Made by a program: the position numbers and the translations under genes. A model generated the notes under the pieces. It searched no databases. It was not told the DNA's origin and saw only the letters and a list, made by a program, of their open reading frames with translations. Positions 9,701-48,700 of a stretch of 64,000 nucleotides of DNA are shown here, one piece after another (position 1 is the stretch's first letter; every line of letters starts with the position of its first letter). The DNA is from Sipunculus nudus (taxonomy: Eukaryota > Annelida > Sipuncula > Golfingiida > Sipunculidae), in contig CM049307.1 of NCBI GenBank assembly GCA_026874595.1, positions 34,142,862-34,206,861 of the forward strand. The letters are read 5' to 3'.

Positions 9701-12700
9701 AAGAGACCCTCATCAATAGAAAGTATAATCAAGTTTAACTGCATCATTAATCTGATTCAGCTGCATGATGAGTTGTTTTCTAACCATCATTTATAACTAG
9801 TTCTGATATACTAAAGTGTTAGAAAGCACAAAATTTAATGAAAGTTAACTCCACCCCAATGACATACTTATTTTTTTTTTTATCTTTTTATTACACTCAA
9901 TACTGGGCTGGTAAAAGACACAGTATTCATCAAAGTGTGACCCAGTCCTGATAAGGTAAGGCCATGGACAAGAAACAGCTGCTATATTGATTAAACATTT
10001 ATTTGGGTCATTAAGCTGAAACCAAAAACAAAATTAGAATGTATCCACCAAAATCAGAGTGAAACGGGTGAAGTGAGGCATGGATTGAGTGGCAAGGGGA
10101 AATAGAGTGAGCTGTGTTGCATATAAGCATGGATGTCTGCAGCCGAAATGTGTATGTACGTTGTGCCATCTACCACAAAATCCAGAAAGCTGTCCAAGTT
10201 GTATACATATGCAAAATTTAAGGCAGATAAGTCGAACCACTACTTGTATATGAGTGATTTTATCCCACAGCAGACAATCAGAAGGATGCTGTGCAAAAAT
10301 TGTGGCAGGTTGCGCCACCAGTTTTGCGTATGATAAAGAGCTATGTGAGATCTATACACATGCATAATTTTGGCCCAATCGGTCAAACGGATCATGAGAT
10401 ATGATCTTGGATGTCTCGCAGCATAAACCAGAATGCAGGGGGCACCACCTGTCAAAAAAACAAGAAAGCTATCCAGGATGTATAAACCTGCAAAATTTTA
10501 GGCAGATATGTCAATCCACTGCCGAGATATGAGTGATTTTATCCCACAGCAGACAAACAGACAGACGCTGTGCAAAAATTGTTGTATGTGGCGCCACCAT
10601 TTTTGCGTATGATAAAGAGCTATGTGAGATCTATACACATGCAAATTTTCAGGAAGATATGTCAAACCAGTCCGGAGATATAAGCATGGATGTCTGCAGC
10701 GTGAATGTGAATGTAGGTGGCGCCACCTGTCATAATATCAAGAAAGCTATTCAGGATGTATACGCATGCCGAATTTCAGGTGAATTAGTCAATTCACTGC
10801 AGAGATATGAGTGATTTTAACCCAAGGCAGACAAACAGATGGACACTGTGCAAACATGGCTGCAGGTGACCCCACCAATTTTTGTGTATGTTATAAAGCT
10901 ATCAAGGGCTACAGTTGTACGAAATTTTTTTCCTGATCAGTCAAACGGTTCCCGAGATATGTGGGTTAATGTGTGGAAACAGACGCACAAATGGACGCTG
11001 GGCAAGGAAGGAAAGGTCAGAGGTTGACGCCAATTGGTTAGGCACCAGTTCACATGTGACCCCATAAATGGTGTAAGTTATGGAAAAATCAGTCCAGTAG
11101 TCTCAGAGGAGTTCTCCGGAAACAAACCCGGCGGTGGAACCCTGTCAAAAACATAGCATCCGCAAAACTTCGTTTTGGCAGATACAAATAAACATATGAA
11201 GTTTAACAATGAGTGACCAAAATTTTAACACCTGAGACATCAATAAAATAGTTATCAAGTCAATAATAAAGAATTAAGTTAAGTGGATCAAAGTCAAAGT
11301 TTTTTATGTACGTCTCAAATGAAACAATACAGACAGACAGATAGAAGTTGGAGCTACTTACAGCATCCTGAGCCACTTCAGAGAAGACTGGTAGCTTATC
11401 AACCAGAGCTGACAGCACCAGGGCTACCAGAAGCAGCGTGAAGTAGATACAGTATGTCACAAAGTAGAACATCTGATCTGTCTCACCCTACAAAGAAAAC
11501 CACAACCACTGAAGTCATAGCACTATTTCCAGAGCTTGTTCAGATACAGCTATTAAATACCATTAGATGGGAAATAATCTTACCTCAGACCCAGAGGTAA
11601 AGTGCATATCCCTATCTGTATGACTTTCTTCTGCAGTCTGAACTTATCTGGATATTGTAGCATGCTGTTTCTTAAATGAATGGTTAAGTCAGGTCATATA
11701 TCAAACAACACGTTGGTTAAATTTGGTGCAGATTCACAATACAGTTTAATTCACAATATTTAAAAAGGCCCAGGCTAGTGGTAACTTAAATGCATTAACA
11801 CAGCCTCATAATTGCCTACACTGTCTGCTGGTTATTGTTAATTGAGACATCCTTTAGTAACTGCAAAATATTTTTATTTCTTTTGGTTTTTCATGTATAT
11901 TATCATTAGAAAAGCTATGAGAAAATGGCCCTGCTAAAATGAAACTCTGTAAATTATAGAATAATGGACATGAGCATAACCATTTAGTGATGCACCAAGG
12001 GAACAAATAGGCCTACAGTAAGTGCTATATAAAAGTAACATTTCATAAACAAATAATGTGTGATGGTAATTCAGTTTTCAAAAGTTAAATATATGGCCAT
12101 ATGAGTTAAAAATTAATCCAATTAAGTTTGACCAATATTCCTAATTTTAATACTAAGTTAACAGTGTTATTCACACCTAGGCCCCGCCAACTTTAAGAGA
12201 TATGAATGAAATGCTACAAAGTATTTATATCTTCTTAAATCTTGTCAGTTAGCACTTATATTAGATCCTAATATTTTATCACATTTGAATATTAGGATTA
12301 AATTCCTGAAATCTTTTTCTTTAAAAAAATCACAATTGTCCAAGTCTCATCAAAAAGAATGTATTTAACATTAAAAATTATAAGATTTATCTTGTTCATA
12401 GTCTTGTGTATTGAAGGGGTGGGTGGGCGGAGAGGTCTCCGTTGTTATTGCTTGTTGCTGAAAAAAAATGTTAATTTTAAGATTTATCTAGTTCATAATA
12501 CAGGTCTGTCAACAGAATGGGGTGGGGGGCGGGGGGGGGGGGGGGGGGGGGGGGGAGAAAAATGCTCCCTGTGGTATGGTATTAACTGCAGACTGCCTGA
12601 TCAAGCTAAACTCAGTGGAGAGAGGGCTTGCCCTAGTGATGGGATTGCATAACATTATGCCAACAGCCTAGGGAGCATGGAGAGCTGCACTGAATGACCT

Positions 12701-45700: not shown

Positions 45701-48700
45701 CTGTTCATTCTTCTTCTTGGTTCAAAAAGTCGATGATACAGTCAATAAAATACAAAAAAATATATTTTTTTTTAAAAAATCTGTACGAATATTGCATCTA
45801 GTACCTGAACACTTCTAAAAATCAACTGTTTCCCCGTTTGTCAATCTAAATAAAGATATCAGATAGCCGCGTCAAAGTGTACATTTTTTCGTGGTGCCAT
45901 GTGTCAGTTGACCATCGCTAAAAACGCGTATTATCAGTTCATATATCGTTCGACAAATGTCAACTGCAGAAACTGCAAAGCTTCATTTCAGAAAACAATA
46001 ATTATAAATAGACCTAACTTGCGCTTTAAGCGGGCCTGACATGTTTTGCAACTTGCTCTTCAACGGTGGGAATTCATGTCACATACTGACATAGGGCCTA
46101 ACTGCAGAAAGTGTCGGTTGCGTGAACATACAACAGGTCACAGAAGTCCCGGGACGACTAAGGCTTGCACATGCGAATATTGACATGAGGGAATTCCTAT
46201 TCAAAATAAGGCATGTGACAAATGTATCTAATAGCGCACGAGAAAGTTCTGAATATTATAAAGAACATAAGACATGTGCAGAAAACAATTGAGTAGGCCT
46301 AATGACGATCTCCGTCTAGACCAGACGCAGTCATGGAATCCGCAGTTGTGGCAGCGTGTAAGATTATTCGCACGACAAATACAAGAAATTAACTAAATTC
46401 ACTTTAAGTTGTCACGTTTTCATATGTCATAAAAGTTTTGGACTGAAGAGAATCTGTGACGGTCGGAAGTGACAGTTCCCGTTAAAATCGTTCTTCGATC
46501 TGTTAACAGATATTCCATTGTAATTGAAGCCGGACTTGCGGTCAATGTATAAAATTCTTAATTATAATTTTGACTCGCGTGTTTCTTCATTGAATATTAC
46601 AAAAAATTAAACAAATTCATACAGATTTCAAGGCACCAGGCGACATTTCGTCAAGTTGAAGTCAATATTTACCCTCTCAGCTGGTCAGGCAGTTCCATCA
46701 AGCAAACAAATCGTCCAGCTAACAACATGTCTTGCATCAAAATACCGGGAGGTTGTTCAATACGTGTAACGGCACTGCTTGGCTGCAACATGCAGTCTTC
46801 TAATTAAAGTACCCGTACCTGCCCAACTCTGGACTTCGAACCAATCGTTTGAGATCCGAAAAAAAAATTTTGGAAGGTTCTGAATGCCAGGAGAGCGATT
46901 ATTAGCTCTCCTAAAGTCTGTTTTAGGCGAGCAATGGCGCGCGGGAGCGATCGCTCGCCTCAAAAGGCAAGGCCTGAAAATATTAAACAAATTTGCCTCA
47001 GTGGCCTCAGTCAAAACACATTTTACAGGTTTATAACTCATATGGGAAAATACAGCAAAATGGCTAAGTTAAGCTTCTCATAACTCATCCAAAAATCACT
47101 GAACCAAACCATTTGAACAAACTTGAATTATCAACATTTAAGGATAATTAATGTGTGAGATTTAAGAATTTGGCCCAGTGGTTTTTGAGAAGAAGATCTT
47201 TGTAGCCACTTAGCTAAAATGGGATTTTATGGCATATGACTAAATGCAGCTTCCCATAACTCAGCCAAAAGTCACTGAACTGAGTCCATTAGAACAAACT
47301 TCAGAAAGCACTACCCTAGGATCATTTCTGTGCGATATTAAACAATTTGGCCATATGGTTTCAGAGAAGTTTTTTGTAGCCGTCAGTATGATCGGGCACT
47401 GATGCCCCCGTACAAAAAAGGTCAATGCAGGTGGCTCCACCAATACCTCAATTTCAGATATGTCTCATGTGAACAACATTGGCATAAAATTTGGTGATGA
47501 TAGCTCCAGCCGTTTCTGAGATTGTAATTTTAGTATGCTTTTATGGACAGATGACTAAGTTCAACTTCCTGCAACTCGGCCAAAAATCACTGAACTTAAA
47601 CCATTCCAACAAACTTGAGAAAGATTATTCCAGGAATCATTTCTGTAAAATATTGGACAATTTGGCTGAACAGTTTCGGAGAAGAAGATTTTTAAAGCTT
47701 TTTTAGCTTTTTCCTTATAAAATCTAAGAAAATGCAGTTAGCCAAAAAATAAGCAAAATCTGATATAGATTTTTAGTAGATTTATTTTTTGAATAAAATT
47801 TCTTGATGCTACCTCTTGCAGTTTTCAAGATAGCAAGGGTTAACGTACAGACAACGGCAGACGGACGACTGACAACGCCACACCATCGCATTAGCTCACA
47901 GGTTCGCTACTTAACTGGCCTCAGTATCATCAGTCAAAAAACGTTTTGTAGGTTTATAACTAATATGGGAAAATACAGGAAAATTGCAAAGTTCAGCTTC
48001 CCATAATTCAGCCAAAAATCATTGAACCAAAACCAGAGAACAAACTTGAATTATCAACATCTAAGGATAATTAATGTGTGATATTTAAGAATTTGGCCCA
48101 GTGGTTTTTGTGAAGAAGATTTTTTTAGCTACTTAGCTAAAATGGGCTGCTATGTCATATGACTAAATTCAGCTTCCCATAACTTAGCCAAAAGTCACTG
48201 AACTGAGACCATTTGAACAAACTTCGGAAAGCACTACCCTAGGATCATTTCTGTGCGATATTAAACAATTTGGCCATTTCGTTTCAGAGAAGAAGTTATT
48301 TGTAGACTTCAGTTTGATACAGGCACTGATGACCCCCGTACAAAAAAGGCAGATGCAGGTGGCGCCACCAATACCTCAATTTCAGATATGACTCATGTGA
48401 CCAACATTGGCATAAAATTTGGTGATGATAGCTCAAGCCATTTCAGAGATTGTAATTTTAGTATGCTTTTTTGGACAGATGACTAAGTTCAACTTCCTGT
48501 AACTCGGCCAAAAATCACCGAACTTAAACCATTCGAACAAACTTAAGAGAGATCGTTCCAGAAATCATTTCTGTAAAATATTGGACAATTTGGCTGAACA
48601 GATTCGGAGAAGATTTTTTAAGCTTTTTTAGCTTTTTCCCTATAAAATCTAAGAAAATGCAGTTAGCCAAAAAATAAGCAAAATCGGATAGAGTTTTTTA

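What the first reader, a model, noticed from the sequence alone, without database searches (positions are those of the whole stretch)
10036..48369. Ten exact copies of the palindrome GGTGGCGCCACC across several repeat families
Exact sites start at 10716, 18488, 24195, 25312, 34522, 34671, 34802, 34951, 39475 and 48358, plus many one-base variants. By chance a given 12-mer palindrome is expected about 0.004 times in 64 kb. The sites lie in families B, C, D and E, otherwise dissimilar, often followed by AGTTT...AAAGCTATCCAAG-like words. A shared core suggests a common binding or replication site, or descent of these families from one ancestor.
Basis: seen in the sequence. Interest (0 to 1): 0.75.

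Follow-up and report, generated by a model that had tools for sequence, protein, structure and literature searches.

The report
Palindrome conserved across transposon satellite repeats
A 12-letter DNA palindrome occurs over a hundred thousand times in this animal genome because it is the best-kept piece of an old, much diverged repeat unit carried by mobile DNA elements, which suggests that it is a protein-binding site.

Summary
The ten exact GGTGGCGCCACC sites are real; one coordinate was wrong (25312 is 25302). All 26 sites with up to 2 mismatches lie in five repeat families covering 16% of the window. The 1.43-Gb animal genome holds 111,729 exact copies, against 14 of the reversed control word; 98.9% have an outward A on at least one strand. 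With the palindrome masked, B and F are plainly one family; D, E and, most weakly, C also resemble B (with mixed controls). Homology alone is not enough: between families the flanks are near noise while the palindrome is 12/12 in 6 of 7 multi-copy consensuses, and within families it diverges less than its flanks (5.5% against 8.9-13.1%; D excepted). B and D have HINE-type ends (non-autonomous Helentrons). Best reading: a protein-binding box kept by selection on the amplifying copies. Host CTCF is a specific candidate (core AGGTGGCGC; ortholog with unchanged ZF3-5 contacts), but no binding data exist, and the equal conservation of both halves is not explained by CTCF alone.

The parts
10040..11190 (-). 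Family B copy 1: HINE-like element, tandem core of alternating ~130/149-bp units (period ~280); palindromes at 10308 (1mm), 10438 (2mm), 10587 (1mm), 10716 (exact), 10865 (2mm)
   Evidence: subTIR 12/14, not significant in this copy. Strand = inferred HINE orientation
23724..24585 (-). Family B copy 2 (one end truncated): palindromes 23867 (1mm), 24045 (1mm), 24195 (exact), 24325 (2mm), 24474 (1mm)
   Evidence: no significant terminal inverted repeat
34106..35272 (-). Family B copy 3: palindromes 34393 (1mm), 34522, 34671, 34802, 34951 (exact); subTIR TGTATCCGCCTAAA (34132) / TTTTGGCGGATACA (35255)
18185..19155 (.). Family C: 326-bp tandem units, palindromes 18488 (exact), 18814 (2mm); terminal hairpin TAGCTCAG-CTGA-CTGAGCTA at 19132 preceded by a GAC-rich stretch
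   Evidence: end-to-end inverted repeat not significant
29147..29830 (-). Family D copy 1: palindrome variant 29494 GGTGGTGCCACC; subTIRs 29176/29814; terminal palindrome TGGCACC-GCA-GGTGCCA at 29160
39090..40137 (-). Family D copy 2, nested inside a copia-like element: palindromes 39475 (exact), 39801 (1mm); subTIRs 39118/40122; terminal palindrome TGGCACC-GCT-GGTGCCA at 39103
24615..25576 (.). Family E fragment: palindrome 25302 (exact)
43593..44597 (.). Family E copy: 43736 (3mm) and 44192 GGTGGCACCACC (1mm)
46995..48825 (.). Family E: two ~920-bp tandem copies, palindromes 47430 (1mm) and 48358 (exact); GACG-rich stretch near one end
36120..36500 (.). Family F: ~129-bp units with decayed palindromes 36172 (2mm), 36298 (2mm), 36427 (3mm); clear homolog of B
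34671..34774 (+). Example of the conserved module: palindrome followed by ~92 bp that can be aligned, with widely varying strength, between families

Best explanation
GGTGGCGCCACC is the constrained core of an old ~105-bp module (palindrome plus ~92 bp downstream) in the satellite-like tandem cores of several families of HINE-like (non-autonomous Helentron) rolling-circle transposons in an animal, probably mollusc, genome. Shown: B and F share the module by descent, D, E and C probably do, and the palindrome is kept far better than the rest. Inferred: it is a sequence-specific double-stranded protein-binding site, and elements that bear it amplify better, so selection acts mainly on the copying elements. 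Inserted copies then decay, fastest at the central CpG.
For: 111,729 exact copies against 14 control. By number of 5-kb bins in 264 kb, AGGTGGCGCCAC (14 bins) is the most widespread non-simple 12-mer and the palindrome joint second (13 bins) (by raw count it ranks 74th, behind words of tandem arrays in few bins). Six of the seven consensuses built from several copies hold it 12/12; F reads GGTGGCACCACC; two single units chosen for it also hold it. Masked HMMs: B1-B2-F strong; the B1 model's best scores for D, E, C are 41.0, 6.3, 4.9 against 4.2 for the best decoy. Right flanks: z 3.7-4.8 B-C, 1.8-4.6 B-D, 4.1-4.9 B-E, 60 shuffles per pair. Within six families or subfamilies: palindrome non-CpG 54/984 (5.5%) against flank 2694/20519 (13.1%), or 1568/17668 (8.9%) without subfamily columns; palindrome CpG 35/198, 25 of 35 changes being C>T or G>A. 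Outward A on at least one strand at 110,547 of 111,729 sites. HINE ends: B copy 3, D1, D2 subTIRs 13/14, 15/17, 16/17, none of 60 shuffles as good. Helitron_like_N: 143 matches in the genome.
Against: No binding, methylation or chromatin data. Families were found through the palindrome, so relatives that lost it are under-counted; flank-only detection softens this, but its models were built from window units chosen by the palindrome. Copies are related, so counts are not independent. D is no exception to flank decay (9/60 against 14.0% and 10.1%), and B1a barely differs from its stable flank (6.2% against 7.0%). The C model scores higher on a satellite array without the palindrome (4.8 bits, 21800-23536) than on any B unit (-1.1), and the D model's left part matches the array at 30850-32260 (8.3 bits). 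In single-copy comparisons B and E agree upstream (0.59 and 0.61 of pairs above the 95% null for B1 and B2), not downstream (0.09, 0.07), and B1-C hardly at all. G1 (L009:3697) shows no downstream homology (z at most 1.0). C and E lack significant end-to-end subTIRs. Satellite arrays 1462-2660, 21800-23536 and 30850-32260 hold no site within two mismatches, so it is not needed by every such element.
Confidence: 0.6

Rival explanations
1. Ordinary homology only: B-F are one ancient repeat family and the palindrome survives by chance or through recent amplification and module exchange, with no function.
For: Flank homology; copies decay with CpG transitions prominent; D's palindrome decays as fast as its flanks.
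Against: Between-family right flanks of B, C, D, E and H are 0.51-0.63 identical in alignments where the unrelated G1 gives 0.46-0.53, while the 12-mer is 12/12 in B1a, B1b, B2, C, D, E and H; pooled within-family divergence is lower in the palindrome; it is among the most widespread words of the sample despite a CpG.
Confidence: 0.25
2. The palindrome is a host CTCF site (core YAGGTGGCGC) spread by the transposons.
For: Outward A at 98.9% of sites and C/T at -2 in 49 of 49 oriented exact sites, where the orientation rule itself favoured A, then Y, then G; fits the CTCF core YAGRKGGCRS as I recall it. CTCF ortholog at C11:67037578-67038510, 56% identical, 11 fingers; contact residues of ZF3, ZF4 and ZF5 4/4 identical to human; that these fingers read the GGNGGCGC part is recalled. 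TE-borne CTCF sites are known in mammals (listing and abstract starts).
Against: CTCF does not need the terminal CACC (recalled), yet the right half is at least as well kept (22/495 changed) as the left (32/489). The upstream CCA of the vertebrate motif is absent (T at -4 in 42 of 49). ZF6 and ZF7 contacts differ (1/4 and 2/4). No ChIP.
Confidence: 0.25
3. Iteron-like site bound by the Helentron Rep/helicase or an associated protein, recruiting it to non-autonomous elements.
For: Tandem sites at regular spacing, 129 and 149 bp being the commonest; long Rep open frames in the genome.
Against: No site at up to 2 mismatches in three 10-kb stretches around Rep matches with long open frames or in four shorter Rep loci, one of which overlaps a stretch; not listed in three other satellite arrays of the window. 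Only 3 of 143 Rep matches were read at 10 kb.
Confidence: 0.07
4. Single-strand hairpin used in rolling-circle transfer.
For: The 12-mer is self-complementary.
Against: 5 of 5 sites fold no better than shuffles (z -0.91 to 1.71), with different structures; the base after the palindrome is A in 27 and T in 21 of 49 oriented sites with A before it in 48, so the stem often does not extend.
Confidence: 0.03

Closest known systems
Cg_HINE elements with satDNA-like cores of the oyster Crassostrea gigas (PMC7492417, passages read)
   Same: Non-autonomous Helentron architecture (subTIRs, IR, terminal palindrome, often a GTCY-type microsatellite) around short arrays of 140-180-bp repeats; one cluster shares only two conserved segments with otherwise dissimilar monomers.
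   Different: The passages read name no GGTGGCGCCACC or equivalent core (the motif letters would be in a figure not held); here one dyad core is shared by families with nearly unrelated monomers, in over 100,000 exact copies.
DINE-1 and mite HINE elements (PMC4067079, passages read)
   Same: subTIRs of 12-15 bp (mite HINEs) or 13 bp (DINE-1) and a 3' stem-loop; optional central tandem repeats.
   Different: No conserved palindromic core in the central repeats is mentioned in the passages read; microsatellite not seen in B and D; TT insertion not tested here.
CTCF sites carried by mammalian transposable elements (listing and abstract starts)
   Same: A transposon spreading a core close to AGGTGGCGC (motif recalled).
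   Different: Here a strict 12-bp palindrome in tandem arrays; binding untested.

Membership tests
HINE (non-autonomous Helentron) | Subterminal inverted repeats of ~11-15 bp at both ends | tested here: met
   Met for 3 of 7 copies tested: B copy 3 13/14, D1 15/17, D2 16/17 (none of 60 shuffles as good); not met for B copy 1 (12/14, not significant), B copy 2 (truncated), C and E1. So families B and D meet it, C and E do not
HINE (non-autonomous Helentron) | IR beside the subTIR at one end and a short palindrome near the other end | tested here: inconclusive
   D1 and D2: TGGCACC-GCW-GGTGCCA at one end; D2 also a 15-bp imperfect hairpin at the other; B: short or imperfect hairpins at one end; C: TAGCTCAG/CTGAGCTA hairpin at one end
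HINE (non-autonomous Helentron) | Microsatellite in one flank | tested here: inconclusive
   GAC-rich stretches near one end of C and E by eye; none seen in B or D
HINE (non-autonomous Helentron) | Central array of satellite-like tandem repeats (optional feature) | tested here: met
   Periods 279-280 (B), 326 (C, D), 129 (F); E ~920 bp doublet
HINE (non-autonomous Helentron) | Insertion between T and T without target-site duplication | not tested
   No empty-site comparison was made
HINE (non-autonomous Helentron) | Ends shared with an autonomous Helentron of the genome | tested here: inconclusive
   143 Helitron_like_N matches exist; a scan for B/D- and C-type end words in 3 stretches around such matches found none, but element ends were not defined and 140 matches were not read
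CTCF binding site | Core YAGRKGGCRS (recalled, from no call) | tested here: met
   -1 A in 48 of 49 and -2 C/T in 49 of 49 oriented exact sites (the orientation rule favoured A and Y); GGTGGCGCC by choice of the word
CTCF binding site | Upstream CCA of the 14-bp vertebrate core (recalled) | tested here: not met
   -4 is T in 42 of 49
CTCF binding site | Occupancy by CTCF in vivo | not testable with these tools
   no ChIP data

The most novel reading that the evidence does not exclude
Rolling-circle transposons have scattered more than 100,000 binding sites of one architectural protein, most likely CTCF with a dyad-extended core, across this genome in arrays spaced about 130-150 bp, and have kept that 12-bp box through divergence that erased nearly everything else.
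Probability: 0.25. Interest if true: 0.85.

Novelty: new variant of a known kind. Interest (0 to 1): 0.6.

Why it matters
Satellite-bearing HINEs are known in bivalves, but their central repeats tend to be treated as passengers. A single dyad core kept at 12/12 in most family consensuses while the rest of the module diverges to near noise, and present 111,729 times, says that these repeats carry selectable information. If the binder is CTCF or another architectural protein, it gives a concrete set of sites for testing whether transposons shape genome folding in spiralians, where a review says that indirect evidence for how topological domains form is limited and a squid is the only reported case (PMC10658181, passages).

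Tried and rejected
Chance: rejected. Single-strand hairpin: not supported. Structured RNA or tRNA/SINE origin: no Rfam family at gathering score and no tRNA in the window. Relatives outside the genome: 3 of 3 viral contigs pattern scans and 1 of 1 genome contigs pattern scan found nothing; these are viral and prokaryote collections, so this says little. Literature: the exact 12-mer occurs in 1 paper of the library, on a bacterial chitinase; GGTGGCGCCA in 31, of which 25 were listed, none on repeats by title. Left flanks as evidence of homology for C, D and E: not significant except D-E (z 3.3). Planned and not answered: genome-wide counts of intact left against intact right half in the B context.

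Notes on outputs: the script prints '200x' but used 60 shuffles per pair. The script calls 'stable' the flank columns without a second base at 25% or more, which biases the flank figure downward. In one search the row for B1 with the right flank as query (25 of 35 with three or more mismatches) shows a one-base register slip from an optional base and was dropped from the later unit set.
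Full report
OBSERVATION. GGTGGCGCCACC occurs exactly ten times in the window, at the stated places except that 25312 should be 25302. With up to two mismatches there are 26 sites against 0.38 expected, and all 26 fall in repeat families B, C, D, E or F, whose extents I drew and which cover 15.7% of the window. The window lies at C2:34142862-34206861 of a 1,426,538,692-base genome in 153 contigs. The exact word occurs there 111,729 times; the same letters read backwards occur 14 times. AGGTGGCGCCACC occurs 76,139 + 76,127 times and AGGTGGCGCCACCT 41,719 times; hence 110,547 of 111,729 sites (98.9%) have an A outside GGTGG on at least one strand. 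In a 264-kb sample (window plus 20 unselected 10-kb stretches from C1-C10), AGGTGGCGCCAC is the most widespread non-simple 12-mer (14 five-kb bins) and the palindrome is joint second (13 bins); by raw count the palindrome ranks only 74th, behind words of tandem arrays confined to few bins. In the 20 stretches, 31 exact sites lie in 5.

SURROUNDINGS. No Rfam family or tRNA is found, CpG is depleted (observed/expected 0.47), and only five ORFs reach 150 aa. This is eukaryotic, animal-like DNA; mollusc origin is my inference from the repeat types and is not established. Families B, C, D and F are tandem arrays with periods 279-280, 326, 326 and 129; E has a ~920-bp doublet. B copy 3 and both D copies carry subterminal inverted repeats (13/14, 15/17 and 16/17 matches, none of 60 shuffles as good), and D carries a TGGCACC-GCW-GGTGCCA palindrome near one end. 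This is the architecture of HINEs (passages of PMC4067079, and PMC7492417). B copy 1, B copy 2, C and E1 did not pass the subTIR test, so for C and E membership is a guess from one-sided hairpins and GAC-rich stretches. The genome holds rolling-circle machinery: 143 matches to Helitron_like_N (a lower bound; the model does not separate Helitrons from Helentrons), several in open frames above 2,000 aa. The palindrome, at up to two mismatches, is absent from three 10-kb stretches around such matches and from four shorter Rep loci, one overlapping a stretch.

ONE FAMILY OR SEVERAL? Palindrome-masked profile HMMs of 232-bp units show B1, B2 and F to be close relatives. The B1 model's best scores for D, E and C are 41.0, 6.3 and 4.9, against 4.2 for the best decoy; among the top two hits printed per pair most lie at the same distance from the palindrome or are shifted by one repeat unit. 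In the other direction support is uneven: the C model finds no B or E unit above its decoys, the D and E models do not find each other. Family consensuses can be aligned for about 92 bp downstream with few gaps, several ending in a GAGATAT-like word. Shuffle z-scores (60 per pair) are 3.7-4.8 for B-C, 1.8-4.6 for B-D, 4.1-4.9 for B-E, 4.5 for C-D and 4.3 for C-E; D-E (1.6) and E-H (0.3) are not significant, and the single copy G1 matches nothing downstream (z at most 1.0). Controls against this: comparing single copies outward from the palindrome, B and E agree upstream (0.59 and 0.61 of pairs above the 95% null) but not downstream (0.09, 0.07), B1-D downstream (0.71), and B1-C hardly (0.12). 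The C model scores 4.8 bits on the palindrome-free array at 21800-23536, and the D model's left part 8.3 bits on the array at 30850-32260, so weak likeness exists among satellite units without the palindrome too; the B models score at most 2.0 and 2.7 on those arrays. I read this as one ancient module for B, F and probably D and E, with C the least certain.

WHY HOMOLOGY IS NOT THE WHOLE STORY. Between families B, C, D, E and H the right flanks are 0.51-0.63 identical in alignments that give 0.46-0.53 for the unrelated G1, yet 6 of 7 multi-copy consensuses (B1a, B1b, B2, C, D, E) and the single units H and G1 hold the palindrome 12/12; F's has lost the CpG (GGTGGCACCACC). H and G1 were chosen for the palindrome. 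Units found by flank alone hold it too: with the left flank as query, B1 units have 15 exact and 16 one-mismatch sites of 36, and B2 units 18 and 10 of 37. With the right flank of B1 as query, 25 of 35 appear to have three or more mismatches, but the per-position pattern shows a one-base register slip caused by an optional base, so that row was dropped; F's five abutting sites on each side have none exact. Within families, palindrome positions outside the CpG diverge at 54/984 (5.5%), against 13.1% in all flank columns or 8.9% after removing subfamily columns. By family: B1a 6.2 against 7.0% (stable), B1b 2.5 against 5.1, B2 5.1 against 11.2, C 7.8 against 10.1, E 0 against 6.2, and D the reverse, 15.0 against 10.1. 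The palindrome's CpG diverges at 35/198, with 25 of 35 changes C>T or G>A; flank CpGs at 332/968 (summed). Copies therefore decay after insertion, and the constraint shows mainly between master lineages. Left and right halves are about equally kept (32/489 and 22/495 changed).

MECHANISM. Most likely the palindrome is a double-stranded binding site that helps the elements that carry it to amplify (inference). It does not behave as a single-strand hairpin (5 of 5 folds unremarkable), and it is not a general requirement of such elements, since arrays at 1462-2660, 21800-23536 and 30850-32260 hold no site within two mismatches (one search lists none there). The host protein CTCF is a concrete candidate. 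Oriented exact sites read TRYAGGTGGCGCC (A at -1 in 48 of 49, C/T at -2 and G/A at -3 in 49 of 49, T at -4 in 42; the orientation rule favoured A, then Y, then G), and the CTCF core as I recall it is YAGRKGGCRS. The genome encodes an 11-finger CTCF ortholog (56% identical over residues 3-310 of the query) whose ZF3, ZF4 and ZF5 contact residues equal the human ones (4/4 each), while ZF6 and ZF7 differ (1/4, 2/4). The missing upstream CCA would fit diverged ZF6-7 (inference), but the kept terminal CACC is not predicted by CTCF. A dimeric factor fits the dyad better.

LITERATURE. Oyster HINEs with satellite-like repeats are described, including one cluster sharing only two conserved segments with otherwise dissimilar monomers (PMC7492417, passages). 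In the passages read of PMC7492417, PMC11136912 and PMC8268682 no such palindromic core is named. The exact string occurs in one unrelated paper of the library. A CCCTC-like motif reminiscent of CTCF was reported at TAD borders in a squid (PMC9023564, passages).

VERDICT. Real, far beyond chance, at least largely one repeat superfamily in origin, with an exceptional constrained core whose binder is not identified.

Noticed in passing
window 36740-42840: Copia-like LTR element (242-bp LTRs 97% alike; RVT_2 E 3.2e-18) interrupted by HINE-like D copy 2 at 39090-40137.
   Followed up: partly
window 1462-2660 and 21800-23536: Two arrays of a 180-bp unit, about 91% alike, with a GACGG-like stretch and, near 23500, a hairpin-like ATGCCCC..GGGGCAT (by eye); they lack the palindrome.
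   Followed up: partly
window 30850-32260: Array of TGACCTTTGACCT-rich units (nuclear-receptor half-site-like words, recalled) ending in a GACA microsatellite and CAGCTGAGCTAAAAA; weak likeness to the left part of family D units (8.3 bits).
   Followed up: partly
window 54470-54834 with 55625-55989; 57592-58285 with 60047-60719: Two inverted repeat pairs, 98% and 91% identical.
   Followed up: no
window 58741-58888: Exact 74-bp tandem duplication.
   Followed up: no
L016 (C4:25000001-25010000): A 10-kb stretch at 58.5% GC in a sample otherwise near 34-40% GC; words of a GCTGCTGACTGA-type array are counted up to 201 times in two 5-kb bins of the sample, probably here (not checked).
   Followed up: no
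genome contig C16, about 12-62 Mb, with smaller groups on C7 and C9: The CTCF query brings up very many open frames of multi-finger C2H2 proteins clustered on C16 (listing capped), a possible expanded zinc-finger repertoire; untested candidates for binding transposons.
   Followed up: no
L036:3298 and L037:3541: Variant palindromes GCTGGCACCACC and GGTGGCACCACC lie in the 3.8-3.9-kb loci of the CTCF ortholog and of the next best CTCF-like match.
   Followed up: no
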